Of a DNA stretch of 64,000 nucleotides, positions 9,356-46,424 are shown piece after piece. The notes beneath the pieces are model-generated. The model saw nothing but the letters and a program-made list of their open reading frames with translations, was not told the origin of the DNA and did not search any database. The stretch's first letter is position 1; the number at the start of each line of letters is the position of its first letter. The translations under genes and the position numbers were made by a program. The DNA comes from Ochrobactrum sp. Marseille-Q0166 (GTDB taxonomy: Bacteria > Pseudomonadota > Alphaproteobacteria > Rhizobiales > Rhizobiaceae): NCBI RefSeq assembly GCF_014397025.1, contig NZ_JACJUO010000001.1, positions 978,501 to 1,042,500 of the forward strand. Direction: 5' to 3'.

Positions 9356-10486
9356 ATGGCTATTAAAATTCCTCCTCTTATGCAGATAAGACAGGCTCGT
9401 TTTAGACTATTTGCGACGGCTTTTTTGATAGGTTCTGCAGTGGTGATGGCTGGATCGGCTGCCTATGCCGAAATGAGCGGCACGATTCCGGTTGCCGTTA
9501 TTGAAAGCGAGCTGGTCGATTACCAGCCGCAACTGACACTATCGGGGGCTATCGCAGCCCGCTCGCTTGTCAACATATCTTTCCGTGTGAATGGCCAAGT
9601 TGTTGAACGCCTTGTCGAAATTGGCCAGCATGTCAATAAAGGGGAATTGCTTGCACGCATTGATAATGCGGAGCAGCAGGCCAATATGCGGGTTGCGCAG
9701 GCATCGCTGGATGCGGCGCGCGCCCAGCTCGTGCAGGCCGAGGCAAGTTTCAAACGACAACAGGCTTTGCTTGATCAGGGGTTCACCACGCGCAGTCAGT
9801 TCGATCAGGCACAACAGATTTTACGTACCGCGCAAAGCACCGTTTCCAATGCTGAAAGCCAGCTGAGCAATGCACGGGATGAACTGTCTTATACCGAGCT
9901 TCGCGCCCCGGTCGCGGGTGTTGTGACGGCGCGGAATGTCGAAACTGGTCAGGTTGTACAGGCGGCACAGACGGCGTTCTCGATTGCGGAAGATGGTGCA
10001 CGTGATGCCATTTTCGATGTACAGGAAACATTGGTCAATCATGCGAAAATAGGCATGGGCGTTACACTCGGTCTGCTTTCCGATGAAGATATCAAGGCTG
10101 AGGGAAGCATTCGTGAAATCTCGCCCGTGGTTGATGCGAAGACTGGTACTGTACGCGTGAAGGTCGGTATTTCGGAAGTGCCACCGCAGATGGCGCTTGG
10201 CGCGATTGTTACCGGTACCGTTCACATGGGTGGCCAGAAGGTTTTTGTCCTTCCATGGAGTGCGCTCACCTCCGATTCGGGAAAGACGGCCGTCTGGAAG
10301 GTCGCCAAAGATACGAAGCTTGCAATGCTGGTGCCGGTTCAGGTGCTTGCATTCGAAAAAGAGCGCGTCATCGTTACTTCCGGTCTGAGTGCCGGTGATC
10401 TTGTGGTGACAAAGGGTGCGCAAATGCTGCGCGCAGGTGCGCAAACGCAAATTACGCAAGCTTATCAAGAGGCCGGCGCAAAATGA
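9356..10486 (+). CDS. RND efflux periplasmic adaptor, first of two (TriA-like)
   Basis: A 376-residue membrane-fusion protein that bridges an RND pump and an outer-membrane channel. It has an N-terminal signal sequence ending near SAAYA|EMSG. The biotinyl-lipoyl half-motif VNISFRVNGQVVERLVEIGQ follows, then an alpha-helical hairpin rich in Gln/Ala (about 95-175), the second lipoyl half (YTELRAPVAGVVTARNVETG) and beta-barrel domains. It overlaps the next adaptor gene by four bases (ATGA), so both adaptors and the pump are one operon. No local regulator is visible. Confidence 0.88.
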   Translation: MAIKIPPLMQIRQARFRLFATAFLIGSAVVMAGSAAYAEMSGTIPVAVIESELVDYQPQLTLSGAIAARSLVNISFRVNGQVVERLVEIGQHVNKGELLARIDNAEQQANMRVAQASLDAARAQLVQAEASFKRQQALLDQGFTTRSQFDQAQQILRTAQSTVSNAESQLSNARDELSYTELRAPVAGVVTARNVETGQVVQAAQTAFSIAEDGARDAIFDVQETLVNHAKIGMGVTLGLLSDEDIKAEGSIREISPVVDAKTGTVRVKVGISEVPPQMALGAIVTGTVHMGGQKVFVLPWSALTSDSGKTAVWKVAKDTKLAMLVPVQVLAFEKERVIVTSGLSAGDLVVTKGAQMLRAGAQTQITQAYQEAGAK

Positions 10487-11577
10487 AACTGCTGAAGAAA
10501 ACTCTGGGTCCGGTTGCCTTGGTTGCAGTGCTTGCCGCTGTTTCAGGGTGTGGTCAAGACGAGAGCAAATCGGCTGAGACTGAGCCCGCTCGCCCCGTGC
10601 TTTATACAATTGCCACGCCAAAAACCGCTGTTCAAACCAGTTTTGCAGGTACTATTGAGCCCCGTTACTCCACCGATCTTGCTTTTCGAGTCTTGGGGAG
10701 ACTGATCGCGCGCCCGGTTATCGTGGGAGATCTCGTCAAGAAAGGTGAGACGGTTGCAATGCTGGATCCCTCCGCGCTTGATCTTTCGGTGCAGTCAGCA
10801 AAAGCGGATCTTGCAAGCGCACAGGCGCAGTTTGCCAATGCTGCAGCCAGTGAAGAGCGTCTTAATATTCTGCTCAAAGGCAGCAATATCTCGCAAGCTG
10901 ATTACGATGCCGCAAAACAGGCGCGTGACAGTGCACAGGCCGGGCTTGAAAAAGCACAGGCCGGGTTGCGAAAGGCGCAGGACCAACGTGGTTATGCTGT
11001 TTTAAGTTCAGATTTCGATGGTGTTATTTCGGCTACCCATGCTGAAGTCGGTCAGGTTGTGGCGGCTGGGCAGGTTGTCATGACGATTGCTCGTCCTGAC
11101 ATCCGCGAAGCCGTTCTCGATATTCCTGATAATATGACGGACTATTTTGTCGCAGGAACACCCTTTCATGTTCAGCTTCAGGCAGACCCGAGCGTAACAG
11201 GACAAGGTACGGTGCGGGAAGTTGCCCCACAAGCGGACGCGCAGACCCGCACACGTCGCGTTCGAATTGCGCTTGAGAACCCGCCCGAAGGCTTTCGACT
11301 TGGTGCCACCATCCGTGCCGGTCGCTTACGCGCGCAAAAAGATCATGTCATCCTGCCGATGCAGGCCTTGTTGGAAAAAGACGGCAAAACCGCGATATGG
11401 GTTATCGACCCCAAAACACAAACTGTACGCCTTCACGATATTCAGGTCGTTGAACGCCGTAGTGACAGCTTTCTAGCCAACAATGTTGAGGTGGGAAGCT
11501 ATGTGGCGACGGCGGGTGTGAACGAGCTTGAAGAAGGCCAGAAAGTTCGACTGGATGCGAAGGGAAGCAGCCTGTGA
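10483..11577 (+). CDS. RND efflux adaptor lipoprotein, second of two (TriB-like)
   Basis: A 364-residue adaptor with a lipoprotein signal (lipobox VSGC, Cys23). The two lipoyl half-motifs (FRVLGRLIARPVIVGDLVKK and SSDFDGVISATHAEVGQVV) enclose a helical hairpin. It is distinct in sequence from the preceding adaptor, so this is not a recent duplication. Two adaptors with one RND pump is the TriABC arrangement of Pseudomonas aeruginosa, where both adaptors are needed. The TGA overlaps the GTG start of the pump gene by four bases. Confidence 0.88.
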   Translation: MKLLKKTLGPVALVAVLAAVSGCGQDESKSAETEPARPVLYTIATPKTAVQTSFAGTIEPRYSTDLAFRVLGRLIARPVIVGDLVKKGETVAMLDPSALDLSVQSAKADLASAQAQFANAAASEERLNILLKGSNISQADYDAAKQARDSAQAGLEKAQAGLRKAQDQRGYAVLSSDFDGVISATHAEVGQVVAAGQVVMTIARPDIREAVLDIPDNMTDYFVAGTPFHVQLQADPSVTGQGTVREVAPQADAQTRTRRVRIALENPPEGFRLGATIRAGRLRAQKDHVILPMQALLEKDGKTAIWVIDPKTQTVRLHDIQVVERRSDSFLANNVEVGSYVATAGVNELEEGQKVRLDAKGSSL

Positions 11578-14500
11578 AAAAGGGTTTCAATCTTTCTGAC
11601 TGGGCTTTGAACCATCGTTCGCTCGTTTGGTATTTCATGCTGGTGTTTCTGGTGGCCGGGTTTGTGTCCTATCTCGACCTTGGCCGTGCGGAAGACCCGG
11701 AATTCACGGTAAAGACGATGGTGGTTCAGGCAAGCTGGCCCGGTGCGTCCATTGATGAAACGATGAATCAAGTCACCGACCGGCTTGAAAAGAAGCTCGA
11801 AGAGCTTGATACGCTTGATTATACGCGCAGCGTAACCACGCCCGGCAAGTCGGTTGTGTTCGTGTTTCTAAAAGATACGGTGCGCAAGGAACAGGTGACA
11901 AAGGCGTGGTCTGACGTCCGGCACATGCTTGATGACATTAAGCCGAACCTGCCCGAAGGTGTTTATGGGCCGTATTATAACGATAAATTCGGGGATGTTT
12001 TCGGCAATATTTTTGCCTTCACATCGGATGGCCTGTCGATGCGTCAGTTGCGCGACTATGCCGAGGCAGTGCGCGCCAAAATTCTGACGATTCCAAGTGC
12101 CGGCAAAGTGGAGCTTATCGGTGCACAGGATGAGGCGATCTATCTTGAATTCTCAACGCGGCAGGTGGCGGCTCTTGGGCTTGATCAGCAGGCTATTCTG
12201 AAGGCACTTCAGGATCAGAACGCGATCACGCCCTCTGGTGTCGTGCAGGCTGGACCAGAGCGCATCAGCGTGCGGGTGAGCGGGCAGTTTGATTCTGAAG
12301 ACGATCTTCGCGCGGTTAATCTGCGCGTCAATGACCGCTTTTTCCGCCTGTCGGATGTTGCAACGATTACGCGCGGTTATGTTGATCCTCCTTCGACTAT
12401 TTTCCGCGTCAATGGGGTGGATGCGATCGGGCTTGGTATCGGTATGAAGCCGAATGGCAATCTGCTGGAATTTGGCGAAAAGCTGGATGCCATGATGCAG
12501 AAGGTGACGGCCGAACTGCCGGTTGGGGTCAATGTTTTCAAGGTTGCGGATCAGCCGGAAGTCGTTCAGGACGCGGTGTCAGGCTTTACCAAAGCGCTGT
12601 TTGAAGCGGTGGTCATTGTTCTTGCCGTGAGCTTTATCAGTCTTGGTTTACGGGCTGGATTTGTGGTTTCGCTGTCAATCCCGCTGGTTTTGGCCATCAC
12701 ATTTCTCGTCATGTCACTGATGGATATTTCGCTGCAACGCGTGTCTTTGGGGGCATTGATCATCTCGCTCGGCCTTCTGGTCGATGATGCGATGATTGCC
12801 GTCGAAATGATGGTCGCCCGGCTTGAACATGGTGATCCCATTCACAAGGCCGCAACCTACGTTTATTCGCACACGGCATTCCCGATGTTAACGGGGACGC
12901 TCGTAACCATCGCGGGCTTTATTCCGATCGGTCTCAATTCCAGTCAGGCGGGCGAATATACCTACACGCTTTTTGTGGTTATAGCGGTCTCGCTGATCGT
13001 TTCATGGGTGGTAGCAGTGTTGTTTGCTCCCCTTTTGGGCGTCACGGTGCTGCCCAAAAAGATGAAACACCATGAGGAAAAACGCGGCCGTTTTTTCCAG
13101 GCTTTCTCGAACACGCTGCTTCTGGCCATGCGTCACAAGTGGATTACAATCATCACAACAATTGCATTGTTTGTGGTCTCGGTTTTCGGAATGGGCTTCA
13201 TTGAGCGCCAGTTCTTCCCGGAATCGGATCGCCCGGAACTGGTGATTGACTGGACATTGCCACAAAACAGTTCGATTGCCGACACAAGAGAGCAGATGGA
13301 ACGGTTTGAGCAGACAATGCTCAAGGATAATCCCGACATTGACCACTGGAGCACTTATATTGGACAGAGTGCAATCCGCTTTATTCTGTCTTTCGATGTG
13401 CAGCCGGCCAACCCGTATTTCGGGCAGATGGTCGTCGTTGCCAAGGACGTTGAGGCGCGTGACCGTCTCAAAGCGAAATTCGATGAAGTTCTGCGCAGGG
13501 ATTATGTCGGCACCGATACGTTTGTAAAATTCCTCGAACTGGGACCGCCGGTTGGCCGCCCCGTGCAATATCGTATTTCCGGGCCTGATATTCAGGAGTT
13601 GCGCGGGATCGCTCAGGATTTTGCAGGTCTCATGAGCGCCGACAAGCGGTTGGGCGTTGTCAGCTATAACTGGAACGAACCGGGGAGGGTTATTCGTGTT
13701 GATGTGATGCAGGACAAGGCGCGTAAGCTTGGCATTTCATCCAAGGATATTGCCACGACGCTCAATGGTATTGTGGGTGGTATTCCCATTACGCAGGTGC
13801 GCGATTCGATCTATCTCATCGACGTCATCGTGCGCGCGCAAAAGCATGAGCGCGATTCCATCGACACGCTTCAGAGCCTGCAAATCGCGACTGGCAACGG
13901 CAGTTCCGTGCCGCTCGCAGCGATTGCGAATTTCCGCTACGAGTTGGAGCAGCCGGTGGTCTATCGCCGCTCGCGTATTCCGACCATTACGGTCGCGGCG
14001 GGTATCAACGACAACACGATGCCCGATACGATTGTGAGCGAATTAGAGCCTTCGGTGAAAACTTTCATCGAAAATCTGCCAGCAGGTTATTCTATCGTGA
14101 CAGCCGGTACGGTTGAGGAAAGCGGCAAGAGTCAGGGGCCTATCGCCGCCGTGGTGCCGCTGATGCTGTTTGTCATGGCAACTGTTCTGATGCTGCAATT
14201 GCAGAGCTTCCAGCGTCTGTTTCTCGTGGTCGCTGTCGCACCTTTGGGGCTGATCGGTGTGGTTGCGGCGCTGCTTCCAAGCGGGAAGCCGCTTGGTTTT
14301 GTTGCAATCCTCGGCGTGCTGGCGCTGATCGGCATTCTTATCCGTAACTCGGTTATTCTGATCGTGCAGGTGGAAGAACATATCAGTGAGGGCATGCATC
14401 CATGGGATTCGGTTGTGCAGGCAAGCCAGCATCGCATGCGGCCCATCGCATTGACCGCTGCGGCTGCAAGTCTGGCATTGATCCCGATCGCGCGGGAGGT

Positions 14501-34177: not shown

Positions 34178-34572
34178 TTTCTTTGCCGGTTTGATTTGTG
34201 AGGCAAATAGTGCCTTCGTGCTTGATATAGTCCTGCAGTTTCTCTGATGCCAGAGCAGCTTGACCGCAAACGCCACGGGATGATGAGTTTATCTATTAGA
34301 ATGATCTCAAATTAAATTATAGCTCTAACCAATTGATTATTCTTTTATATTAAAAAATTTATACAGCTATTAAGACATAGAAGTGTGCATATTTAAAATG
34401 ATATTTTTTACATTTCGTATTAAATTTTTCTAAATAGATAGGTTTCTTTAAATTAGGTTTTATTCAGATTAATTCTTTTGGATGCTATTCGTAGAGTATC
34501 CGAATGCATTTGATTTTTTTTAAATATTATTAAATTATATAAATACAACGTATACATGATATGGGGGTGTGT
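34178..34572. other. AT-rich intergenic region at the edge of the adhesin locus
   Basis: Nearly 400 bp with no gene. From about 34300 to 34560 the DNA is strikingly AT-rich (roughly one quarter GC by eye), unlike the backbone on either side. It contains many short A and T tracts. It marks the left edge of the AraC/adhesin/secretion locus and looks like DNA that an H-NS-like silencer such as MucR would bind. I see no integrase, transposase or direct repeat here. Confidence 0.7.
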
Positions 34573-35475
34573 ATGCCAAATTCTACAGCAGATTTGGTTC
34601 CATTTCATAATATAAGTTCCATCGAAGCTATTGAAATAACAAAGACAAGCTTGGAAAGTGGATGGACGAACCTATATGCCTCGATCGTGAGAGTGCAGCC
34701 TTTTAGTTCCTCATTTTCTTCCGTTGATTCGCTGCTTATTTCCATGGTTCTTAAGGGACAGTCACGTGCAAGGTGGGAGGTGGATGGCGAGCTATCGGAA
34801 ATAGTTCTTGAGCCTGGAGCAATAATTATTCTTCCTCCAGGAGCTCCAATTGAAGTAAATATTAAAGATCCTGTTGAATTCATAAACATTTATATATCTA
34901 AAAATTTATTTAATGATGTCATAATAGAGTTTTCTTCTTATACTAGTAGTATATTGCGTCTAGATAATTTTATTTTTTTGTTTGATGATTTTATTGAGAA
35001 TATAATAAAATCATTGATAGATATACTATATGTTGGAGGAAGGTTCTCTTGTATGGAAGCGCAATATATAGTTCGTGTTTTAGTGGCGCGCGTTGTATCG
35101 AAATACTCCGAGAGCACTTCTAAAGATCTGAATATGGATGCGGGATTGTCGGTCCCTGTTCTTCAAAGGACATTCAATTTTATTGATGAAAATCTTCATA
35201 GGCGGATTGTAATTGAACGATTAGCTGAAACTGCGGGCGTCGGGGCGGCTCAATTTGCAAGATTGTTCAAGCGAGCAACCAATGTCACCCTTCATCAGTA
35301 CATTATTAAACGCAGAGTGGAGCGAGCGCGTCACCTCTTGATGGAAACGCATATGTCGATAGCAGAGATTGCGCACGAGTGTGGCTTTGCGGATCAGGTT
35401 CATCTAACGCGCTTTTTCGGGCGTATAATCGGAACAAGTCCAGCGTCATTCAGAAAAAAAGAACGCAGGATTTAA
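34573..35475 (+). CDS. AraC-family transcriptional regulator of the adhesin locus
   Basis: A 300-residue AraC/XylS regulator. The C-terminal 100 residues carry two helix-turn-helix motifs (IVIERLAETAGVGAAQFARL and MSIAEIAHECGFADQVHLTR) and the family tail FFGRIIGTSPASFRK. The N-terminal 200 residues form a poorly conserved sensor domain. The N-terminal half has AT-rich codons (runs of Ile, Asn, Phe, Lys), while the C-terminal half is near backbone composition. GGGGGTG favours the ATG at 34573 over the one at 34561. It lies just upstream of the giant adhesin gene in the same direction, so local control of adhesin expression is likely but unproven. Confidence 0.85.
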   Translation: MPNSTADLVPFHNISSIEAIEITKTSLESGWTNLYASIVRVQPFSSSFSSVDSLLISMVLKGQSRARWEVDGELSEIVLEPGAIIILPPGAPIEVNIKDPVEFINIYISKNLFNDVIIEFSSYTSSILRLDNFIFLFDDFIENIIKSLIDILYVGGRFSCMEAQYIVRVLVARVVSKYSESTSKDLNMDAGLSVPVLQRTFNFIDENLHRRIVIERLAETAGVGAAQFARLFKRATNVTLHQYIIKRRVERARHLLMETHMSIAEIAHECGFADQVHLTRFFGRIIGTSPASFRKKERRI

Positions 35476-35796: not shown

Positions 35797-38700
35797 ATGG
35801 TTGCAGTTGTCACGAATAAAGCGAGTGGTAGTTCGCGAACTATATCTGGAAATAATATTGTTTTATCTGCTCCAAGCATCGTAAAAATTTACATGGATCC
35901 GAAATCTGTTTCGGAATATCAACGAATAGGTGACGATCTCCTCATTAGACTGCATAATGGCGAAGCAATTCGCATTGTTAACTATTATGCCCACTATAAT
36001 AATGGCCAAGACAGCGATCTCGTCTTTGAAGATGGAAACGGTAAGCTATGGGCCGGCCATCATAGTGATGGGCTTGCCGATTTTAATTTTTCGGAAATTC
36101 AGGGTGTAGATCAGCTTGCAGGCGGCGGCGATCTGGGGCCGATTTTGTTAGGTTTGGCTGGCTTGGGCGCGATAGGCGGAGCGATAGGCGCGTCTTCCCG
36201 GGATCATGACGATGATACTGATGCAGACGCGGATGCCGATGCAGATGCAGATGCTGATGCTGATGCAGACGCGGATGCCGATGCTGATGCAGACGCTGAT
36301 GCGGATGCCGATGCAGATGCAGATGCTGATGCAGACGCTGATGCGGATGCCGATGCAGACGCTGACGCAGATGCGGATGCCGATGCAGATGCTGATGCTG
36401 ATGCAGACGCTGACGCTGATGCGGATGCTGATGCTGATGCAGACGCTGATGCGGATGCCGATGCAGACGCTGACGCAGATGCGGATGCCGATGCAGATGC
36501 TGATGCAGACGCTGATGCGGATGCTGATGCGGATGCCGATGCAGATGCAGACGCTGACGCAGATGCGGATGCTCCAGATGCTCCCGAAGTGACGCTTGGA
36601 ACAGATGGTCGAACGCTGACGATCACGGGCGAGCCGGGTTCGACAGCGACGATCCGTGGCCCGGATGGAGGGGTCCTTGGCAGCGTTGTTATTTCGGACG
36701 AAGGGACTGCGACGTTTACGCTTGATCCAAGCGATGGTCAGAATGTGACTGTCACGCTGACGGATGATGCGGGTAACGAGTCGGAAGAAACATCTATAGT
36801 TGTTCCGGATACGCTTGCACCGGATGCTGCGACGGTTGCTGTTGATGAGGATGGCTTAACGCTGACGATCACGGGCGAGCCGGGTTCGACAGCGACGATC
36901 CGTGGCCCGGATGGAGGGGTCCTTGGCAGCGTTGTTATTTCGGACGAAGGGACTGCGACGTTTACGCTTGATCCAAGCGATGGTCAGAATGTGACTGTCA
37001 CGCTGACGGATGATGCGGGTAACGAGTCGGTAGAAACATCTATAGCTGTTCCGGATACGCTTGCACCGGATGCTGCGACGGTTGCTGTTGATGAGGATGG
37101 CTTAACGCTGACGATCACGGGCGAGCCGGGTTCGACAGCGACGATCCGTGGCCCGGATGGAGGGGTCCTTGGCAGCGTTGTTATTTCGGACGAAGGGACT
37201 GCGACGTTTACGCTTGATCCAAGCGATGGTCAGAATGTGACTGTCACGCTGACGGATGATGCGGGTAACGAGTCGGAAGAAACATCTATAGTTGTTCCGG
37301 ATACGCTTGCACCGGATGCTGCGACGGTTGCTGTTGATGAGGATGGCTTAACGCTGACGATCACGGGCGAGCCGGGTTCGACAGCAACGATCCGTGGCCC
37401 GGATGGAGGGGTCCTTGGCAGCGTTGTTATTTCGGACGAAGGGACTGCGACGTTTACGCTTGATCCAAGCGATGGTCAGAATGTGACTGTCACGCTGACG
37501 GATGATGCGGGTAACGAGTCGGTAGAAACATCTATAGCCGTTCCGGATACGCTTGCACCGGATGCTGCGACGGTTACTGTTGATGAGGATGGCTTAACGC
37601 TGACGATCACGGGCGAGCCGGGTTCGACAGCGACGATCCGTGGCCCGGATGGAGGGGTCCTTGGCAGCGTTGTTATTTCGGACGAAGGGACTGCGACGTT
37701 TACGCTTGATCCAAGCGATGGTCAGAATGTGACTGTCACGCTGACGGATGATGCGGGTAACGAGTCGGAAGAACAGCTTGTTGAATTGCCTGATACGCTC
37801 GCTCCTGCCGCGCCAATCGACTTGAGTGTGAGCTCTGATGGAACGACACTCACTGGTAAGGGCGAGGTTGGCGCAAAGGTAATAGTGCGTGATTCCAATG
37901 AAAATATCATTGGCGAAGGCCTTGTTGGCGACGATGGTGAATTTGAGATTACATTAAATCCCGCACAGACTGAAGGTGGAGAGCTTTCTGTTACTCTTGA
38001 AGACGCCGCAGAAAATGTATCTGGGCCGGGCCTCATAACTGCTCCTATTATTGATGATGGTGATGCAGACGCGGACGCTGACGCAGATGCCGATGCGGAT
38101 GCCGACGCAGATGCTGACGCAGATGCGGATGCTGATGCCGACGCCGACGCCGACGCTGATGCCGACGCTGATGCTGACGCAGATGCTGATGCTGACGCTG
38201 ACGCGGATGCAGATGCTGATGCCGATGCTGATGCTGATGCCGATGCTGACGCTGACGCGGATGCCGACGCTGATGCTGACGCCGATGCTGACGCGGATGC
38301 CGATGCTGATGCTGACGCAGATGCCGACGCCGATGCTGACGCGGATGCTGATGCTGATGCTGACGCTGACGCAGATGCCGACGCCGACGCCGATGCGGAT
38401 GCGGATGCTGACGCAGATGCAGATGCTGACGCAGATGCCGATGCTGATGCTGACGCTGACGCGGATGCCGACGCTGATGCTGACGCCGATGCTGACGCTG
38501 ACGCGGATGCCGATGCGGATGCCGACGCAGATGCTGATGCCGACGCTGATGCTGACGCAGATGCAGATGCTGACGCAGATGCCGATGCTGATGCCGACGC
38601 TGATGCTGACGCAGATGCAGATGCTGACGCAGATGCCGACGCGGATGCTGATGCTGATGCTGACGCAGATGCTGATGCTGATGCTGACGCTGACGCAGAT

Positions 38701-41448
38701 GCCGACGCCGACGCCGATGCGGATGCGGATGCGGATGCGGATGCTGACGCTGATGCTGACGCAGATGCAGATGCTGACGCAGATGCCGACGCGGATGCTG
38801 ATGCTGATGCTGACGCAGATGCTGATGCCGATGCCGACGCCGACGCCGATGCGGATGCGGATGCTGATGCCGACGCCGATGCTGACGCGGATGCTGATGC
38901 TGACGCTGACGCAGATGCCGACGCCGACGCCGATGCGGATGCGGATGCGGATGCGGATGCTGACGCTGATGCCGATGCGGATGCGGATGCTGACGCTGAT
39001 GCCGATGCTGACGCCGATGCCGATGCCGACGCAGATACGGAATCGCCAGATGCTCCAGGCGTCACTGTCGGTCAAGATGGTCGTACACTCACGATAACTG
39101 GTGAGCCAAATACGACTGCGACGATCTATAACTCTATCGGTGGGATCATTGGTACTGTTGCTCTCTCAGATGAGGGTACTGCCAACTTCACTCTTGAACG
39201 CAGCAACGGACAGAATGTCCTGGTCACGCTCGAGGATGCTGCGGGCAATGAGTCCGAGGCAAGCTCAGCCACGGTACCTGATACTCTGGCGCCTCTGGCA
39301 CCAACAGATATTACCGTCACACCTGATGGTGGCACGATTAATGGTAAGGGTGAGCCAGATACCAAAGTTGTTATCCGGGACTCTGATGACAATATTGTCG
39401 GGGAAGGAACTGTTGGACCTGATGGTAATTTCCAAGTTGGTCTTGTTCCTCCACAGCGCGACGGTGGGCAGCTTTCTGTTACACTTGAGGATGCGGCTGA
39501 AAATGTATCAGAGCCGGGTTCTGCAACTGCGCCGATAATTGATCCAGATAGCACAATACCGGTTGATGATAATGTTACCGCGGGCGTGGTCGTACAGCCT
39601 ACAGAGACACCAGTTAGTTATCCGGGTGCTTCCTATCTGGCTCTCATTGGGCTTCTTGGGCTTGATCTGCGTGTGCTCAGTGTTAACTCGGTTGATTTCA
39701 CTGTTGCTCAGGGACACCAGCAGAATTTGCAGCTTAGTTATTCGCAAGCTGTAGGTTTGGATTTGGCCGGTGGCACATCGATCATTATCCAGAAACTGAT
39801 GCCAGATGGTACGTGGTCTTCAGTAGACGGAAGTGGTGATGCGACGTTGCTCTCGCTTACATTGCTTGGCAATCGTGCAGAAGCCAGTGCGCTTTTGGGT
39901 GAGGGAACCTATCGAGCTTTTGCAGCGGTACAAAACACCGTTAGCGTTGGTTTGCTGGGTAACTTGCAGGTATCGGGAACTGACCTCAATTACCAAGAAC
40001 CGGCAGGTGTTCAGGTCTCCGCCATTCAGGGTAACATTCTGACCAATGACGGTGGATCAGTGGATGCTGATCATATTGTGACCAATGTTTCCGTGGGTGG
40101 TACTCCACATGCGGTTGTTGCGGGCGCGCAGGGTACGACGATTGATGGTCTGTACGGTACGCTCATCATCCATCAGGATGGTTCCTATACCTACACGCCG
40201 AATGCAACTCTCGCGAACATCGGCAAGGTGGATCAGTTTACCTACACGAAATACGATCCGCTGACTCAGACAAGTACGACAGCTGAATTGAACATCAGAA
40301 TTAACAGTGATGGTCAAGGTCTTGTCTGGAATGACGACAACTTTGGAGAAGATGCAACTTACGACTTCGCTGCTACAGATGATGTCAACGGTGCAGGTAT
40401 CGCCTGGACAAATGTGGTGAATAATAATTTCCACAATTATACGCAAACCGTCAGTGCGCTCTTAGGAGGAGGGCAAGGAGACAGTACCCCATTCACTATC
40501 GGCAGCAATATGGATGCCTTTGGTACCATTACCGTTTCGGTCAATCTTGCGGCCGCTGCGACGGGTACCGTTGGTCTGCAGCGACTGGTTGGGGGTTCCT
40601 GGCAGAATGTCGGTACGCCTGAATCCTTCCAGATGACCGTCGGTTTGCTGGGTACGATTAAGACCATCGATATTGGCAGCCTCGATCTGCCAGCTGGACA
40701 GTATCGCGTTCACACCACGCTGAGTGGCTTGGCGGGATCGGTCAATACGGTAACAGATGTCAAGGTTATCTACACAGATCTGCACGTCATTCAGAACAAT
40801 CCTGGTGTCGAAGGCAATCTGTTTGAAAATGACGGTAATTTGCCTCTTTCTGCTAAGTTGCAGGTTGAGGGTACGAGTGGCTTTGTAACAATCAGTGCTG
40901 CTGGGACAATTATTGAAGGCGTTTATGGCGATCTGACTATCTACAGCAATGGTGAGTACAAGTATCAGCCGCACTCTAATCTGGCCTATGCGGATCGTGA
41001 GGAGTCTGACACGTTCACTTATAAGATCGTGCTGCCAAACGGTCATGAATCTACAGCAGAGCTGACGATCAATCTTGAAGAAGGCCTGATGATATCTCGG
41101 ATGAGCCTCTCTGAAGATGTTGTCGGTGATGCAACTGGCGCAGAGTATGCTGCAAGCGACGTCATACCACTGGGAGATCATTCTGATCCGAATGATGCAA
41201 ACACTGATGATCAGGACAGTTCCGAGCATAATCTGACGGAAGCTCTGCTTTTGGATGATGGAATCGGCGAAGTGACACTGCCATTTGGCGAAGACGAAAC
41301 CTCTGATGAGGAAAGCTTCGTCTCCGCATCGATAACGAATGGCTCAGCTACTTCCGCAGATCCGATCCTTTCGGATGATCCATTGTCTCATCTTGTCCCC
41401 GATCCACTCTTACAAGAGGATGACCTCAATACCACGCATTCGGTCTGA
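35797..41448 (+). CDS. Giant BapA-like repeat adhesin with Asp-Ala dipeptide stalks
   Basis: A 1,883-residue predicted surface adhesin exported by the downstream type I system. Order: a BapA/Bap-type N-terminal prefix domain (residues 1-110); a Gly-rich hydrophobic stretch (LLGLAGLGAIGGAIGASS, 117-134); an uninterrupted Asp-Ala tract of 59 units (142-259); five near-identical 82-residue Ig-like repeats (260-669); a diverged Ig-like domain (670-755); a second Asp-Ala tract of 162 units (756-1079); two more Ig-like domains (1084-1250); two copies of a large C-terminal module with VCBS-like strands ending YTYTP/YKYQP (about 1270-1510 and 1535-1765); and an acidic tail. There is no Sec signal and I see no GGxGxD RTX repeats. 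Secretion is inferred from the tolC-ABC-HlyD genes behind it. The Asp-Ala tracts are analogous in form to staphylococcal Ser-Asp stalks but use a different dipeptide. The ATG at 35797 has a strong GAGGAGA site. Confidence 0.88.
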   Translation: MVAVVTNKASGSSRTISGNNIVLSAPSIVKIYMDPKSVSEYQRIGDDLLIRLHNGEAIRIVNYYAHYNNGQDSDLVFEDGNGKLWAGHHSDGLADFNFSEIQGVDQLAGGGDLGPILLGLAGLGAIGGAIGASSRDHDDDTDADADADADADADADADADADADADADADADADADADADADADADADADADADADADADADADADADADADADADADADADADADADADADADADADADADADADADADADADADADAPDAPEVTLGTDGRTLTITGEPGSTATIRGPDGGVLGSVVISDEGTATFTLDPSDGQNVTVTLTDDAGNESEETSIVVPDTLAPDAATVAVDEDGLTLTITGEPGSTATIRGPDGGVLGSVVISDEGTATFTLDPSDGQNVTVTLTDDAGNESVETSIAVPDTLAPDAATVAVDEDGLTLTITGEPGSTATIRGPDGGVLGSVVISDEGTATFTLDPSDGQNVTVTLTDDAGNESEETSIVVPDTLAPDAATVAVDEDGLTLTITGEPGSTATIRGPDGGVLGSVVISDEGTATFTLDPSDGQNVTVTLTDDAGNESVETSIAVPDTLAPDAATVTVDEDGLTLTITGEPGSTATIRGPDGGVLGSVVISDEGTATFTLDPSDGQNVTVTLTDDAGNESEEQLVELPDTLAPAAPIDLSVSSDGTTLTGKGEVGAKVIVRDSNENIIGEGLVGDDGEFEITLNPAQTEGGELSVTLEDAAENVSGPGLITAPIIDDGDADADADADADADADADADADADADADADADADADADADADADADADADADADADADADADADADADADADADADADADADADADADADADADADADADADADADADADADADADADADADADADADADADADADADADADADADADADADADADADADADADADADADADADADADADADADADADADADADADADADADADADADADADADADADADADADADADADADADADADADADADADADADADADADADADADADADADADADADADADADADADADADADADADADADADADADADADADADADADADADADADADTESPDAPGVTVGQDGRTLTITGEPNTTATIYNSIGGIIGTVALSDEGTANFTLERSNGQNVLVTLEDAAGNESEASSATVPDTLAPLAPTDITVTPDGGTINGKGEPDTKVVIRDSDDNIVGEGTVGPDGNFQVGLVPPQRDGGQLSVTLEDAAENVSEPGSATAPIIDPDSTIPVDDNVTAGVVVQPTETPVSYPGASYLALIGLLGLDLRVLSVNSVDFTVAQGHQQNLQLSYSQAVGLDLAGGTSIIIQKLMPDGTWSSVDGSGDATLLSLTLLGNRAEASALLGEGTYRAFAAVQNTVSVGLLGNLQVSGTDLNYQEPAGVQVSAIQGNILTNDGGSVDADHIVTNVSVGGTPHAVVAGAQGTTIDGLYGTLIIHQDGSYTYTPNATLANIGKVDQFTYTKYDPLTQTSTTAELNIRINSDGQGLVWNDDNFGEDATYDFAATDDVNGAGIAWTNVVNNNFHNYTQTVSALLGGGQGDSTPFTIGSNMDAFGTITVSVNLAAAATGTVGLQRLVGGSWQNVGTPESFQMTVGLLGTIKTIDIGSLDLPAGQYRVHTTLSGLAGSVNTVTDVKVIYTDLHVIQNNPGVEGNLFENDGNLPLSAKLQVEGTSGFVTISAAGTIIEGVYGDLTIYSNGEYKYQPHSNLAYADREESDTFTYKIVLPNGHESTAELTINLEEGLMISRMSLSEDVVGDATGAEYAASDVIPLGDHSDPNDANTDDQDSSEHNLTEALLLDDGIGEVTLPFGEDETSDEESFVSASITNGSATSADPILSDDPLSHLVPDPLLQEDDLNTTHSV
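36220..36573 (+). repeat. Asp-Ala coding hexamer tract 1 (59 units)
   Basis: 354 bp of pure GAY-GCN hexamers encoding 59 Asp-Ala dipeptides. Asp and Ala codons vary in the third base (GAT/GAC; GCA, GCC, GCG and GCT), so the DNA is less uniform than the protein. Confidence 0.97.
36574..37803 (+). repeat. Five tandem 246-bp Ig-like repeats
   Basis: Five exact-length units begin at 36574, 36820, 37066, 37312 and 37558. Each encodes 82 residues with the core LTITGEPGSTATIRGPDGG. They are nearly identical in DNA. Copies 1 and 3 share the linker variant EETSIVV, and copies 2 and 4 share VETSIAV, which points to duplication of a two-unit block. Copy 5 has its own linker (EEQLVEL). Confidence 0.95.
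38062..39033 (+). repeat. Asp-Ala coding hexamer tract 2 (162 units)
   Basis: 972 bp of pure GAY-GCN hexamers encoding 162 Asp-Ala dipeptides. Longer exact duplications are embedded: 38596-38678 equals 38746-38828 (83 bp, offset 150). The motif GCCGACGCCGACGCCGATGC recurs at 38377, 38701, 38833 and 38917. Other frames and the opposite strand stay open across the tract only because of the repeat. Confidence 0.97.
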
Positions 41449-41541: not shown

Positions 41542-43005
41542 ATGCGAAAAATCCGGATTTTAAGACGTTTCGCTGCAATATCAATTACTTCATGCCTTTT
41601 GGCTGCGTGCCAGATGTCTGCTGACAATCTCGCTTTGGGCGAAAAAACGCTCAAGCAAACGAAGAATTCCGAGGCCCCTCGGCCCCTGTCGATGGCGGGT
41701 TCCACCCCCGTGCCTGCTGTTGACAGGGTCAATGTGACAGCTTCTGTCACTCCCAAGACGTCGGATCACGGTTCCCTGACCATGGAAGCCGCGGTCCGGC
41801 GGGCCGTGAATTGGCATCCCGTTGTGGAAGAAGCGACAGGCAGAATCTATCAAGCCGATGAGAGAATACGTGTAGCGCAGGCTGGATATTACCCCAAGCT
41901 CAATGCTGGAGTGAATTCTGGCTACCAAAGCAATAACCGTGAAGGTTGGCGCCCGCAGTTTAATGTTGGTGCATCGCAATTGCTTTATGACTTTGGAAAA
42001 GTTGCAAGCTCGGTTGATGCCGAGCGGGCAGGGAAAGCAATTTATCACGCACGACTGCTTCTGGCCGTCGATAACCTGTCACGCGATACCGCGAACGCCC
42101 TTATTGAAGTGCAGCGCTATCGCAAACTTTCGGTCGTTGCGCAGCAACAAGTTGAAGGCGTAAAGCGTATTTCAGCGCTTGTTAAAGAGAGGACGGACAA
42201 AGGTGCGAGTACCATGTCCGACAAGGTGCAGGCGGATGCACGTGTCGAATCTGCTTTAGCGACGCAATGGCAATATCAGTCTGAGCTCAATCGCTGGGAA
42301 GTTGCACTAGCCGCTTTGATTGGTGGCAGCAAGCCAAACCCAACGAATGAAGTGCCCACATGGCTTGGCAAGTCATGCGATGTGGCTGTGCCTGACTGGG
42401 AGGAAGTGCCCGCTATGCTTCAGGCGAAAGCCGAAAAGGAAGAAGCAAAGGCACAGCTCGCTGCTAGCAAAGCAGAAGCCTTTCCCACCGTTTCGCTTGA
42501 AGCTTCGACGGGCTACGACCTTAACGCGTCGCGCGATAACACCACCAGCAACGACCGTCAGCCGGAATATTCCTTGGGCGTCAACGTGTCATCCAGCCTC
42601 TATAATGGTGGGCAGACACGCGCGCGAAAGCGTGCAGCCATTTATGGGCTTCAATCTGCGGAAGCGGCAATCAGTACAGCACGCGTCGATATGGAGCGAA
42701 ACCTACTGGAATCGCGAAGCCAAATTGGCACCTTGAGCCGCTTGATGGGGTCGTTAGAGCTTCGCGCAGAAATGATGGTCAAAACGCGTGACCTTTATCG
42801 CGAGCAATATGTTGAGCTGGGTACTCGCACTTTGCTGGACTTGCTCAATGCTGAGCAGGAACTGCATGAAGCACGTTTTCAAAGCGCAAATACAGTTCAC
42901 GATATTCGTCGGCTCAATCTGAATTGCCTCTATAGCTCAGGCAAGATGCGGCAGAGCTTTGGTCTTCATACAGCAATGCTGACGGGAAGGTGGACAGCTC
43001 AATGA
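41542..43005 (+). CDS. TolC-family outer-membrane channel of the type I secretion system (lipoprotein)
   Basis: A 487-residue TolC/LapE/AggA-type outer-membrane efflux protein with a lipoprotein signal (lipobox LLAAC, Cys23). The mature protein shows the family's repeated helical/strand pattern, including MEAAVRRAVNWHPVVEEATG near the N-terminus and the second-half repeat YSLGVNVSSSLYNGGQTRAR. It would form the outer-membrane exit for the adhesin. GGA seven bases before the ATG serves as ribosome-binding site. The stop overlaps the next start (ATGA). Confidence 0.9.
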   Translation: MRKIRILRRFAAISITSCLLAACQMSADNLALGEKTLKQTKNSEAPRPLSMAGSTPVPAVDRVNVTASVTPKTSDHGSLTMEAAVRRAVNWHPVVEEATGRIYQADERIRVAQAGYYPKLNAGVNSGYQSNNREGWRPQFNVGASQLLYDFGKVASSVDAERAGKAIYHARLLLAVDNLSRDTANALIEVQRYRKLSVVAQQQVEGVKRISALVKERTDKGASTMSDKVQADARVESALATQWQYQSELNRWEVALAALIGGSKPNPTNEVPTWLGKSCDVAVPDWEEVPAMLQAKAEKEEAKAQLAASKAEAFPTVSLEASTGYDLNASRDNTTSNDRQPEYSLGVNVSSSLYNGGQTRARKRAAIYGLQSAEAAISTARVDMERNLLESRSQIGTLSRLMGSLELRAEMMVKTRDLYREQYVELGTRTLLDLLNAEQELHEARFQSANTVHDIRRLNLNCLYSSGKMRQSFGLHTAMLTGRWTAQ

Positions 43006-45218
43006 AGCCAAATGACACACATTCAACCCTAGAAACGCCACTTGATGCAGCATTGATAAGTGGTCAGCAAGCGCTTGAAGCGGCTGAGGACTTTAAACGG
43101 GAGGAGTGGCTTGAGGCCCTGCACATTATAGCAAAGCATTATCGGATACCGATTTCGGTACAAGGTACAAAGCTTGCTGCTGCTGCAGATCAGAATACTG
43201 ATAACGCAATGCGCATACGTGCAATGGCGCGACATATGGGATTGGGTATCAGATTAGTTGATTCGCAGAAAATTACCCTTTCGACATGGCATGTGCCGTT
43301 TATTTTGGCGCTTAGTAACGGCCAGCTTGCCGTCGTTCGTACGATATCTAAAAATGGAGATGCCAGCGTATGGCTCAGTGGAGAGAAAGGGCTGGAGCAA
43401 CCTTTTCAACTGCAAGAGCTGTTGGCGGAAACTAAAGAAGTCGTTCTGGCGCGCCCATCCAAAACAGTGCCTGATGCGCGTGTAGATGCCTATATCCAGC
43501 CTTATGAAGAGAACTGGCTACGTCGAATTTTATTTCGCGACCTTGGCTCTTATGGGCATGTTCTCATTGCTTCGCTGGTTGCTAACACACTCGGCCTGGC
43601 AGGGATTTTATTCTCTATGCAGGTTTATGATAGAGTGGTGCCAGCGCAGTCATTTAATACGCTTTACGTATTATTCAGCGGTGTTCTGCTGGCCATACTC
43701 TTCGATTTTCTGATGCGGCGTGCCCGTATGGGCATCATCGATGTGCTGGGTAAGCAAACAGATCTACAGATGTCTGATGTCGTTTTTGGACACGCGCTGC
43801 GAGTTAGAAATCAGGCGCGCCCAACCTCGACGGGTTCGTTTATCGCACAGTTGCGCGATATTGATCAGGTTCGGGAGTTGCTGACTTCAACAACGGTAGC
43901 AGCGCTGGCCGACTTGCCGTTCTTCCTGTTGTTTTTGCTCATTTATTGGCTACTCGTCGGGCCCTTGGTTTTTATACCGCTTGGTGCGCTCGTCCTGCTC
44001 ATCTTGCCTGGACTCTTCTTACAAAGACGCCTACGCAAATATGCCAATGAAGCGATGCGTGAGGCATCCTTGCGCAATGCAATGCTTGTAGAAACGGTGC
44101 AAGGCATCGAAGACATCAAGTCGCTACAAGCTGAAGATCACTTTCAGCAGCAGTGGAACCATTTTAATGCGGTCACAGGTGAAGCGCAGATCAGGCTGCG
44201 CTCGCTTACAAACAGCCTGAGTGTATGGACACAGAATGTACAGGGGGGTGTTTATGCGCTTACAGTTTTTGTCGGTGCGCCGCTAATCATTGAAGGTGAC
44301 ATGACGACGGGTGCGCTTGTGGGCGCTTCGATCCTCGGCTCTCGTATGCTGGCACCCATGGGACAATTGTCGCAAATCATGGGTCGCTTACAACATGCGC
44401 GCATTGCGAAGAAGGGCCTGGACCAGCTTATGAAAATGCCGGTCGATCACCCGGAAAGTGAGACCCGCATTCATTGCCCAAAAATTGACGGATCCTATAA
44501 GCTGAAGGCCGCAGTCTATCGGTATGGTGACGAAAAGTTAGCCCCCGTACTTCTGGTCAAAGATATGAAGATTTCGTCCGGTGAACGCATCGCCGTTTTG
44601 GGGCGCAATGGTGCTGGCAAGTCAACTCTATTGCTTGCACTGTCAGGGTTGATGGAGCCTTCTGAAGGGGAGGTTTTGCTTGATGATTTGGCTTTGTCGC
44701 AGATCGATCCTGCTGATGTGAGGCGAGATATCGGCTTATTGACGCAAAATTCACGCCTGTTTTTTGGCTCGTTGCGCGACAACATCACGATGGGTGCGCC
44801 TGATGCTTCTGACGCTGAAATTCAGCGGGTATTGGCCATGGTGGGCGCGGATGCCTTTGTTCGCGGACTGCAAAAAGGGTTGGAGCATGTGGTGCAGGAA
44901 GGCGGTGGTGGGCTTTCCGGCGGGCAAAAGCAGGCAATTTTGCTGGCGCGTCTTCTTATTCGCGATCCTTCCGTTGTGTTGCTTGATGAGCCAACCTCAT
45001 CAATGGATGAAGCAACTGAACGCCATTTCATAGCGCAGTTTGCAAAATGGAGCGCTGGTCGCACTGTTGTTATCGCAACGCATCGCATGCGGGTGCTTGA
45101 GCTGGTTCAACGAATGATCGTGATTGAGAACGGTCAGGTGGCACTTGATGACGGCAAGGAACGGGGATTGCAAACCCTGCTCGGCATGAGCAAGGTAGAA
45201 GCACCTAAGCAGGCGTGA
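43002..45218 (+). CDS. Type I secretion ABC transporter with degenerate C39-like domain (LapB type)
   Basis: A 738-residue exporter ATPase. Residues about 1-150 form a C39 peptidase-like domain with no catalytic Cys, so it probably recognises rather than cleaves the substrate, as in LapB/HlyB. A six-helix membrane domain follows (about 175-440), then the nucleotide-binding domain with Walker A GRNGAGKSTLLLAL, signature GGLSGGQKQAILLARL, Walker B SVVLLDEPTSSMDEA and His switch VVIATHRMRVLEL. The ATG at 43002 overlaps the tolC stop; a GTG at 42990 is less likely because its purine-rich site is too close. Confidence 0.92.
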   Translation: MKPNDTHSTLETPLDAALISGQQALEAAEDFKREEWLEALHIIAKHYRIPISVQGTKLAAAADQNTDNAMRIRAMARHMGLGIRLVDSQKITLSTWHVPFILALSNGQLAVVRTISKNGDASVWLSGEKGLEQPFQLQELLAETKEVVLARPSKTVPDARVDAYIQPYEENWLRRILFRDLGSYGHVLIASLVANTLGLAGILFSMQVYDRVVPAQSFNTLYVLFSGVLLAILFDFLMRRARMGIIDVLGKQTDLQMSDVVFGHALRVRNQARPTSTGSFIAQLRDIDQVRELLTSTTVAALADLPFFLLFLLIYWLLVGPLVFIPLGALVLLILPGLFLQRRLRKYANEAMREASLRNAMLVETVQGIEDIKSLQAEDHFQQQWNHFNAVTGEAQIRLRSLTNSLSVWTQNVQGGVYALTVFVGAPLIIEGDMTTGALVGASILGSRMLAPMGQLSQIMGRLQHARIAKKGLDQLMKMPVDHPESETRIHCPKIDGSYKLKAAVYRYGDEKLAPVLLVKDMKISSGERIAVLGRNGAGKSTLLLALSGLMEPSEGEVLLDDLALSQIDPADVRRDIGLLTQNSRLFFGSLRDNITMGAPDASDAEIQRVLAMVGADAFVRGLQKGLEHVVQEGGGGLSGGQKQAILLARLLIRDPSVVLLDEPTSSMDEATERHFIAQFAKWSAGRTVVIATHRMRVLELVQRMIVIENGQVALDDGKERGLQTLLGMSKVEAPKQA

Positions 45219-45233
45219 TGCGGGAGATACAGC

Positions 45234-46424
45234 ATGTCAGCCATCGGCGGAGACTTTGGTGCCTGGGTCACTGGAAGTGAGCAAGGGCAGCGCCTCAAGA
45301 AAAAGAAGCGTTTTGTCAGGCTGGTGTTCGTCTTTTTCATTGTTCTTGTGGTGTGGTCTTATCTTGCCTTGTTGGACGAAGTTTCCAACGGGACTGGCAA
45401 GGTTGTGCCGACATCGCAAGAGCAGGTTATTCAATCACTTGAAGGTGGTGTTGTCGCAAGTCTCATGGTGCGTCAGGACGATGTTGTAGAGCCGGGGCAG
45501 ATATTGGCCCAACTTGATCCGACGGTTACCGAGTCCAGCGTGCAGGAGAGCGCAGCAAAATATCGGGCCGCTCTTGCAAGCTCAGCACGGCTGAGTGCAG
45601 AAGTTAGTCAGGCCGAATTGAAGTTCTCACCTGAGCTTGATGGGTTTCCCTTGCTTAAGGCCTCAGAAATACAATTGTTCGAAGCACGCAAACAAAGTCT
45701 TATGGAGGCTTTGTCTTGGATCACAGAATCCAAGCAGTTGGTTCAGGATGAATTGAACATCAGTCAGTCGCTGACGAAAATGGGCGCAGCCAGCAATGTT
45801 GAAGTTATTCGTTTGAAGCGGCAGCTTGTCGAATTGCAGCTCAAGGAAACAGAGATTCGGTCGGATTACATTGTTCAGGCGCGTGAAGAGCTTGCCAAAG
45901 CAAATGCGGAAGTTGAATCGCTTTCATCTGTCATTCGAGGCCGTACCGATGCCCTCACGCGTCTAACATTACGCTCACCGGTACGCGGTATCGTCAAGAA
46001 TATTGAAGTGGCCACTATTGGAGGCGTTGTGCCGCCGAATGGTAAACTGATGGTGATTGTGCCGCTGGATGAACAATTGCTGATAGAGACGCGCATTTCG
46101 CCACGGGACATTGCATATATTCATCCAGATCAGCGTGCGACTGTTAAGATTACGGCTTATGATTATTCAATCTACGGTGGCCTCGAAGGGAAGGTAGTCA
46201 GCATTTCCGCAGATACGATCCAAGACGAGACCAAGCCTGAGAACTATTACTACCGCGTTTTCATTAAGACCGAAAAAGACGCGCTTCTAAACAAGAACGA
46301 GCAACGCTTTCCGATCGTTCCCGGCATGGTGGCGACAGTAGACATTCACACTGGAAGCAAGACGGTCTTTGATTATCTGGTTAAGCCATTGAACAGAGCA
46401 AGCGAGGCTCTTCGAGAGCGATAA
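45234..46424 (+). CDS. Type I secretion membrane-fusion protein (HlyD/LapC family)
   Basis: A 396-residue HlyD-type adaptor. A short basic cytoplasmic N-terminus (KKKKRFVRLV) precedes one transmembrane helix (about 27-45). The lipoyl half-motif VIQSLEGGVVASLMVRQDD follows, then a long coiled-coil (about 90-230, Glu/Lys/Leu-rich), the second half (LTLRSPVRGIVKNIEVATIG) and a beta-barrel ending PGMVATVDIHTGSKTVFDYL. It completes the tolC-ABC-MFP export set for the adhesin. GGGAG precedes the ATG. Confidence 0.93.
   Translation: MSAIGGDFGAWVTGSEQGQRLKKKKRFVRLVFVFFIVLVVWSYLALLDEVSNGTGKVVPTSQEQVIQSLEGGVVASLMVRQDDVVEPGQILAQLDPTVTESSVQESAAKYRAALASSARLSAEVSQAELKFSPELDGFPLLKASEIQLFEARKQSLMEALSWITESKQLVQDELNISQSLTKMGAASNVEVIRLKRQLVELQLKETEIRSDYIVQAREELAKANAEVESLSSVIRGRTDALTRLTLRSPVRGIVKNIEVATIGGVVPPNGKLMVIVPLDEQLLIETRISPRDIAYIHPDQRATVKITAYDYSIYGGLEGKVVSISADTIQDETKPENYYYRVFIKTEKDALLNKNEQRFPIVPGMVATVDIHTGSKTVFDYLVKPLNRASEALRER

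What the first reader, a model, noticed from the sequence alone, without database searches (positions are those of the whole stretch)
35797..41448. Giant adhesin whose stalks are pure Asp-Ala dipeptide tracts
Two perfect Asp-Ala runs (118 and 324 residues) make up about a quarter of the 1,883-residue protein and flank a stack of Ig-like domains. Long simple dipeptide stalks are known in Gram-positive Ser-Asp (Sdr) adhesins. I know of no described Gram-negative BapA-type adhesin with Asp-Ala stalks. Such a run would carry one negative charge every second residue and could be a salt- or calcium-responsive spacer, or helical or extended depending on ions. Combined with a dedicated exporter this may be an undescribed adhesin class.
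Basis: partly seen in the sequence, partly recalled or inferred. Interest (0 to 1): 0.9.

Follow-up and report, generated by a model that had tools for sequence, protein, structure and literature searches.

The report
BapA-type adhesin with Asp-Ala spacers
This bacterium encodes a large, probably exported surface adhesin with two long stretches of strictly alternating aspartate and alanine; the feature is real, but adhesins of this kind are already published, so it is a new member of a known family and not a new class.

Summary
The ORF 35797-41448 (1883 aa) holds two perfect Asp-Ala runs (118 and 324 aa, about 23.5%) around six Ig-like domains. It has a BapA prefix domain, a BapA/Bap/LapF-type C-terminal region and an adjacent type I secretion operon. 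The claim of an undescribed class fails. Paracoccus denitrificans BapA, a published alphaproteobacterial adhesin with 891 Asp-Ala repeats beside its exporter, is needed for biofilm, and calcium stimulates attachment there (PMC5588039). Hybrid Acinetobacter BAPs with 148 AD pairs are published too (PMC4647330). The genome appears to be Brucella in the broad, Ochrobactrum-including sense. In that genus 12 of 17 BapA_N copies carry runs. Codons suggest selection for aspartate: purines at 0 of 221 Asp wobble sites against 84 of 221 Ala wobble sites. Best reading: an exported, N-terminally tethered adhesin with length-variable polyanionic spacers; export, tethering and adhesion are inferred.

The parts
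34561..35475 (+). AraC-family regulator upstream of the adhesin
   Evidence: Pfam HTH_18 86.1 bits, cut-off 33.6; a homologue lies upstream of the BapA_N gene in 9 of 13 genus loci examined that include the gene's start, in one of them (G001) split and on the other strand
35797..41448 (+). BapA/Bap/LapF-family adhesin, 1883 aa
   Evidence: translation, Pfam, NCBIfam
35806..36123 (+). BapA_N prefix domain, aa 4-109
   Evidence: PF22783 93 bits, cut-off 27; NF033677 59.8 bits, cut-off 35; confident, mostly beta model over about aa 1-90
36133..36192 (+). hydrophobic Gly/Ala/Leu-rich segment, aa 113-132
   Evidence: sequence; seen in the aligned genus members and in BapA_N proteins of other taxa
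36220..36573 (+). Asp-Ala run 1, 118 aa, in the linker slot between the hydrophobic segment and the first Ig-like domain
36574..38046 (+). six Ig-like (Big_6) domains, aa 260-750; the first four 246-bp units are 98-100% identical to each other, the fifth about 83%
38062..39036 (+). Asp-Ala run 2, 324 aa plus one Asp, aa 756-1080
39046..39531 (+). two further Ig-like domains, about aa 1084-1245
39697..41079 (+). C-terminal adhesin region, aa 1301-1761
   Evidence: NF045619 345.1 bits, cut-off 180
41080..41445 (+). acidic C-terminal tail, presumed to hold the type I secretion signal
   Evidence: sequence; similar C-terminal end in G012 and G022 and a looser one in P. denitrificans L041; role inferred
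41542..43005 (+). TolC-type outer-membrane channel
   Evidence: TIGR01844 242.6 bits, cut-off 225.15
42990..45218 (+). type I secretion ABC transporter, LssB type
   Evidence: TIGR03375 776.2 bits, cut-off 693.1
45234..46424 (+). HlyD-type periplasmic adaptor
   Evidence: TIGR01843 308.5 bits, cut-off 208.65

Best explanation
The gene encodes a BapA-family surface adhesin exported by the TolC-ABC-HlyD type I system encoded directly downstream. Most likely the protein leaves the cell C-terminus first, and its N-terminal BapA prefix domain with the hydrophobic segment stays behind and tethers it in or under the outer-membrane channel. Asp-Ala run 1 takes the place of the short polar linker that other BapA_N proteins have there. 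Run 2 separates the Ig-like stack from the C-terminal region. Both runs act as extended, strongly negative, length-variable spacers (59 and 163 Asp; roughly 40 and 110 nm if fully extended) that hold the C-terminal part away from the cell; divalent cations may compact or cross-link them. Shown here: domain content, operon, codon-level constraint on the runs and length variation among relatives. Inferred: export, tethering, adhesion, extended shape and ion response, partly by analogy with the published P. denitrificans BapA experiments.
For: Domains and operon: BapA_N, 8 Big_6 stretches, NF045619, and TolC, ABC and HlyD models, each over its curated cut-off. Constraint: purines at 0 of 221 Asp wobble sites and 84 of 221 Ala wobble sites. 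Slot: in 21 of the 29 census loci with a BapA_N match, the first run of at least 15 pairs starts 26-62 aa after that match. Spacing: of 89 proteins with a BapA_N match (window's own included) 3 were dropped because the match lay beyond residue 200; in the other 86 the shortest distance from the end of BapA_N to the first Ig-like domain is 42 aa, median 87. Length variability in the genus: 34, 68, 166, 180, 414, 458 and 1190 aa, plus 62 in a truncated and 374 in a broken copy, plus runs cut by contig ends. Precedent: in P. denitrificans Pd1222 the exporter deletion is almost completely, and the bapA deletion severely, deficient in biofilm, and 10 mM calcium stimulates attachment (PMC5588039 passages). 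Contigs of P. denitrificans DSM 413 (another strain) fetched here carry PF22783 at 69.9 bits (L059), an NF045619 match (L041) and neighbouring ABC and HlyD genes at 54% and 57% identity.
Against: No PDB sequence matches the N-terminal 138 aa at E <= 0.1 and the AlphaFold model finds no PDB fold at E <= 0.001, so its role as a tether has no structural support; aa 110-136, with the hydrophobic segment, are modelled with pLDDT below 50. A LapD N-terminal domain was found in 0 of 15 genus genomes searched, own included (none of the 14 control genomes rang either, though 2 of 25 searched genomes did). Five of 17 BapA_N copies in the genus show no run, one of them (G022) seen only in part. In G007 and G026 the run lies further inside the protein, not in the linker slot. 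None of the 120 listed homologues has a run of 16 aa or more. Run 1 keeps a duplication signal slightly above all 200 shuffles. The P. denitrificans C-terminal piece scores 167.1 bits, under the NF045619 cut-off of 180. Expression, export and adhesion of this protein are untested.
Confidence: 0.85

Rival explanations
1. The Asp-Ala runs are largely neutral products of replication slippage; the protein works through its Ig-like and C-terminal domains alone.
For: Run length ranges from 34 to 1190 aa in the genus and 5 of 17 BapA_N copies show no run. Duplication traces exist: tandem arrays at 79-83% matches over the runs, in-frame 60-bp words that recur (6 in run 1, 18 in run 2), and a best third-position lag identity of 0.622 in run 1 against a maximum of 0.617 in 200 shuffles.
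Against: Purines at 0 of 221 Asp wobble sites against 84 of 221 Ala wobble sites, and no other residue within either run. In run 2 the best lag, 0.481, is inside the shuffle range (mean 0.471, maximum 0.511), and no 90-bp word recurs in frame in either run, so the runs are not recent copies of one unit.
Confidence: 0.12
2. The runs are primarily a calcium-binding or mineral-nucleating polyanion and not a mechanical spacer.
For: Kumar and Spiro propose calcium-mineral nucleation or a calcium-induced change for P. denitrificans BapA and report calcium-stimulated attachment (PMC5588039 passages).
Against: Calcium could act through the folded domains: the Ig region here matches the Ca_tandemer model at 110.6 bits, cut-off 50. 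Nothing in the passages I read separates the run from the domains.
Confidence: 0.25
3. The run lengths, or the two-run layout, are assembly artefacts.
For: Long repeats are collapse-prone; here the 246-bp Ig units at 98-100% identity are the likelier place. PMC4647330 warns that assembled BAP repeat regions may be wrong (Discussion).
Against: The frame is open through both runs, synonymous codons are mixed and no 90-bp word recurs in frame, and assemblies of other genus members carry in-frame runs.
Confidence: 0.05

Closest known systems
Paracoccus denitrificans BapA with BapBCD (Kumar and Spiro 2017, PMC5588039, abstract and passages; Yoshida et al. 2017 seen only as its citation)
   Same: Alphaproteobacterial adhesin with BapA_N, a hydrophobic segment followed by pure Asp-Ala runs, an NF045619-like C-terminal region and an adjacent type I exporter
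   Different: Far longer run (891 pairs, 1782 of 2211 aa); no Ig-like stack in the passages or pieces seen; exporter order on L041 is ABC, HlyD, TolC, here TolC, ABC, HlyD
Acinetobacter hybrid alpha/beta (type-8) and beta BAPs (De Gregorio et al. 2015, PMC4647330)
   Same: Long tracts of alternating residues in BAPs, 148 AD pairs in A. haemolyticus TG19602; 38-aa NH2-region insertion made mostly of DA repeats; beta genes flanked by lapEBC exporter genes in two strains
   Different: Other genus and COOH regions; most dipeptide tracts reported there are SD; in the two Acinetobacter sequences printed here (P0057, P0121) the short D[AS] insertion precedes the hydrophobic segment
Staphylococcal Sdr/Clf proteins
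   Same: Long acidic dipeptide stalk; the Sdr and Clf models match the runs by composition
   Different: Ser-Asp instead of Asp-Ala, sortase-anchored (recalled); scores far below the curated cut-offs
Other BapA_N adhesins listed from Salmonella, Sphingomonas, Pseudomonas and others
   Same: BapA_N, hydrophobic segment, linker, Ig-like array
   Different: Mixed polar linker; no DA run of 16 aa or more in the 120 homologues listed

Membership tests
BapA/Bap/LapF large adhesin | BapA prefix domain at the N-terminus | tested here: met
   PF22783 93 bits (cut-off 27), NF033677 59.8 (cut-off 35)
BapA/Bap/LapF large adhesin | NF045619 C-terminal region | tested here: met
   345.1 bits, cut-off 180, aa 1301-1761
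BapA/Bap/LapF large adhesin | Tandem Ig-like domains | tested here: met
   PF17936 8 stretches, 450.5 bits; Ig region matches the PDB chain 7dm0_A, biofilm-associated surface protein, E 2e-9
BapA/Bap/LapF large adhesin | Type I exporter next to the gene | tested here: met
   TolC, ABC and HlyD models over cut-off at 41542-46424
Asp-Ala BapA (P. denitrificans type) | Long perfect Asp-Ala run between N- and C-terminal domains | tested here: met
   118 and 324 aa; P. denitrificans L059 shows runs of 242 and 714 aa before its contig ends
Asp-Ala BapA (P. denitrificans type) | Homologous N-terminus | tested here: met
   L059 PF22783 69.9 bits, 35% identity to the window N-terminus
Asp-Ala BapA (P. 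denitrificans type) | Homologous C-terminus | tested here: met
   L041 against the window C-terminal region, phmmer E 3.1e-18; NF045619 167.1 bits, under its cut-off of 180
Asp-Ala BapA (P. denitrificans type) | Needed for biofilm; attachment stimulated by calcium | not testable with these tools
   needs experiments; published for P. denitrificans
Acinetobacter type-8 hybrid BAP | Long alternating-residue tracts in a hybrid alpha/beta BAP | tested here: met
   Ig-like domains plus DA runs against the description; no sequence comparison made
Acinetobacter type-8 hybrid BAP | Type-1-like COOH region | not tested
   no A. haemolyticus type-8 sequence was fetched
Staphylococcal Sdr | Ser-Asp dipeptide run | tested here: not met
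   the runs are Asp-Ala only
Staphylococcal Sdr | C-terminal LPXTG sorting signal | tested here: not met
   none seen by reading the C-terminus in the translation
LapA-type releasable adhesin | LapD partner in the genome | tested here: not met
   PF16448 in 0 of 15 genus genomes incl. own; weak control, as 0 of 14 control genomes rang. PF06035 occurs in 39 of 40 genomes and so does not discriminate
RTX protein | RTX nonapeptide (PF00353) repeats | tested here: not met
   no such match at E 0.001

The most novel reading that the evidence does not exclude
In BapA_N adhesins the stretch from the prefix domain to the first folded domain would be the part that threads the TolC channel and needs a minimum length of about 42 residues. 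Asp-Ala runs would be an expandable form of this thread, and elsewhere of the stalk, which a genus tunes from tens to more than a thousand residues while selection fixes an aspartate at every second position. That would make reach and ionic response of one adhesin evolvable by simple repeat length.
Probability: 0.25. Interest if true: 0.5.

Novelty: new member of a known kind. Interest (0 to 1): 0.22.

Why it matters
It corrects a claim of novelty: Asp-Ala adhesins are published, and such runs occur in many genera. What it adds is a natural series inside one genus, one adhesin type with runs from absent to 1190 aa, which could help to separate the role of the run from that of the folded domains, and codon-level evidence that the aspartates are under selection.

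Tried and rejected
Staphylococcal Sdr membership: rejected, as the matches are compositional, far below cut-off, and no LPXTG is seen. LapG/LapD control: not supported. Fold of the N-terminal domain: no PDB match at E <= 0.001, no sequence match at E <= 0.1. Growth of the runs from one recently copied unit: not supported for run 2 (best lag within shuffles); run 1 slightly exceeds all 200 shuffles, so older or partial duplication is likely. Protein homologue search: 311 hits, 120 listed, none but the window's own with a DA run of 16 aa or more, which alone would have suggested rarity; the DNA scan showed otherwise. In one search, 17 of 60 relative genomes match the whole protein, but several weak ones match mostly within the runs, so I count genus members by PF22783 instead.

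Literature searches. Only (terms ochrobactrum, bapa, adhesin; 2 papers listed, neither opened) was aimed at this genus, so absence there is weak evidence. Seen: PMC4647330 outline with abstract, passages, section 8 and Discussion; PMC5588039 outline with abstract, and passages; PMC13235738 passages. All other papers only as search listings.

Full report
Observation. The ORF 35797-41448 on the + strand translates to 1883 aa. It contains 59 Asp-Ala pairs at aa 142-259 and 162 pairs plus one Asp at aa 756-1080, in all 443 residues or 23.5%. The order is BapA_N (aa 4-109), a hydrophobic Gly/Ala/Leu segment (aa 113-132), run 1, six Ig-like domains, run 2, two Ig-like domains, the NF045619 region (aa 1301-1761) and an acidic tail. 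Downstream lie TolC (41542-43005), an LssB-type ABC exporter (42990-45218) and a HlyD adaptor (45234-46424), each above its NCBIfam cut-off. An AraC-type regulator lies upstream. By sequence the Ig region matches the PDB chain 7dm0_A, a biofilm-associated surface protein (E 2e-9), and the part after run 2 matches 9y9w_A, a cadherin domain protein (E 4.5e-11), and 7dm0_A (E 3.5e-8).

Selection on the runs. In the 221 GAYGCN hexamers of the two runs the first two positions of every codon are invariant, while third positions vary. At Ala wobble sites, where any base is silent, 84 of 221 are purines; at Asp wobble sites, where a purine would give Glu, 0 of 221 are. This indicates that the protein sequence is kept. 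Substitutions spread by duplication are not independent, so I give no probability. Duplication has left traces: in-frame 60-bp words recur in both runs, tandem arrays are found at 79-83% matches, and in run 1 the best third-position lag (0.622 at 108 bp) is just above the highest of 200 shuffles (0.617); in run 2 it is inside the shuffle range (0.481; maximum 0.511). The first four Ig units, at 98-100% identity, look more recently copied than the runs.

Which organism. The relative G007 carries the adhesin on a contig of 446,874 bases at 365,195-369,019; a contig of the same length with Asp-Ala matches in its stretch 360,001-368,000 is Brucella rhizosphaerae PR17 in the named collection (L098). 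I infer that G007 is that species and that the window lies in Brucella in the broad sense that includes Ochrobactrum (the merger is recalled). No call names the species of the window.

Within the genus. PF22783 occurs in 13 of 35 genus genomes, in 17 copies. Twelve copies carry a run of at least 16 aa: the window, G001, G002, G007, G008 (two), G013, G014, G025, G026 (C3) and G033 (two). Five show none: G012, G016, G008 C3, G026 C4 and G022; the G022 gene is split over two contig ends and its middle was not seen. Run lengths are 1190 aa in G014, 458 in G008, 414 in G033, 180 in G007, 166 in G026, 68 in G002, 34 in the second G033 copy, 62 in the truncated second G008 copy, 374 and 102 in the broken G001 copy, and at least 48 (G013) and 164 and 122 (G025) where contigs end. 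In G026 and G007 the run lies further inside the protein (from ORF positions 334 and 428). The ornithine cyclodeaminase beside the locus is present in 21 of 21 genus genomes searched. The adhesin lies near it in the window's genome and in G002, G007, G026 and G033 (in G033 the contig ends before an exporter could be seen). In G008 only a 227-codon frame that ends soon after a 62-aa run is at that site, with no exporter match in the 12 kb, while a full copy with exporter is on another contig. In G010 no adhesin, AraC or exporter match was found in the 12 kb around the cyclodeaminase. The gene thus looks accessory within the genus (inference). An AraC homologue lies upstream of the BapA_N gene in 9 of 13 fetched genus loci that include its start, in G001 split and on the other strand; loci L157-L159 were not examined for it.

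Outside the genus. These are stretches, not species: some records give two, and one (L098) is the congener B. rhizosphaerae. In 29 of 118 the frame with the run has a BapA_N match, in 24 a match to this C-terminal region, in 41 at least one of these, in 47 one of these or an exporter component in the stretch; 8 have LPXTG in the last 120 residues of the frame. The stretches are at most 8 kb and many frames are cut (only 83 of 118 have their upstream end and 69 their downstream end inside), so these are lower limits; the other 71 stretches, which hold at least six of the LPXTG cases, were not classed further. In 32 of 118 a run is 324 aa or longer. In 21 of the 29 BapA_N cases the first run of at least 15 pairs begins 26-62 aa after the BapA_N match; in the other 8 it begins 70-308 aa after it.

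Prior art. Kumar and Spiro 2017 (PMC5588039; abstract and passages) report that P. denitrificans BapA has 2211 residues with 891 Asp-Ala repeats, is encoded next to the type I genes bapBCD, was identified by mass spectrometry as a very large envelope protein, and that the bapBCD deletion is almost completely and the bapA deletion severely deficient in biofilm; 10 mM calcium strongly stimulates attachment. They discuss calcium-mineral nucleation and calcium-induced change and compare BapA with SdrC. De Gregorio et al. 2015 (PMC4647330; section 8 and Discussion) report hybrid alpha/beta BAPs with 79 SD or 148 AD pairs in two A. haemolyticus strains, long SD tracts in beta BAPs, and a 38-aa insertion mostly of DA repeats in the NH2 region of A. 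baumannii and A. haemolyticus BAPs. Two contigs of P. denitrificans DSM 413 in the census match the window at the two ends: BapA_N 69.9 bits; C-terminal phmmer E 3.1e-18 and NF045619 167.1 bits, under its cut-off of 180; ABC, HlyD and TolC at 54%, 57% and 27% identity in the order ABC, HlyD, TolC. Both contigs end inside the run, so its whole length was not measured here.

Mechanism. Shown: domains, operon, codon-level constraint, length variation. Inferred: export C-terminus first, N-terminal tether, run 1 as the segment leaving the channel, run 2 as a stalk. One quantitative hint: of 89 proteins with a BapA_N match (window's own included), 3 were dropped because the match lay beyond residue 200; in the other 86 the distance from the end of BapA_N to the first Ig-like domain is at least 42 aa, median 87. 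Fully extended, 42 residues are about 14-15 nm, close to the length of TolC (recalled). Many of the 86 are near relatives (Salmonella, Acinetobacter) and the Ig profile misses other folds, so this is only suggestive. The BapA_N model is confident and mostly beta over about aa 1-90, with no PDB fold match at E <= 0.001. A LapD domain was found in 0 of 15 genus genomes.

Verdict. It is a new member of a known kind.

Noticed in passing
L152 (G014), ORF 7418-13553: A congener encodes an uninterrupted Asp-Ala run of 1190 aa in a 2045-codon frame, longer than the longest run seen in the 118-stretch census (1044 aa, L022, in a frame cut by the stretch end).
   Followed up: partly
L147 (G008), 6179-6860: A truncated adhesin frame of 227 codons ending soon after a 62-aa Asp-Ala run sits at the cyclodeaminase site without exporter match; a full copy with exporter is on another contig (L146).
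   Followed up: partly
L149 (G001): BapA_N, C-terminal, AraC, TolC and ABC matches are each split in this assembly (listed at 85% completeness and 7% contamination); described only.
   Followed up: no
L157 (G016), L158 (G008), L159 (G026): Another kind of BapA_N protein, 3054-3476 codons, without Asp-Ala runs; in G016 and G008 an ABC exporter of about 50% identity to the window's lies next to it.
   Followed up: partly
L038, L064, L066, L090, L093, L094, L107, L115: Frames with LPXTG near the C-terminus and runs of at least 30 Asp-Ala pairs in Listeria, Staphylococcus, Salinicoccus, Jeotgalicoccus and Phytoactinopolyspora, which suggests convergent use of such a stalk.
   Followed up: no
window 36612-37595: Four Ig-like units of 246 bp at 98-100% identity, a likelier place for assembly collapse than the Asp-Ala runs.
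   Followed up: no
G000, three places on C1: Three PF06035 peptidase matches in the window's genome and in 20 of 24 genus genomes searched, own included, although no LapD domain was found.
   Followed up: no
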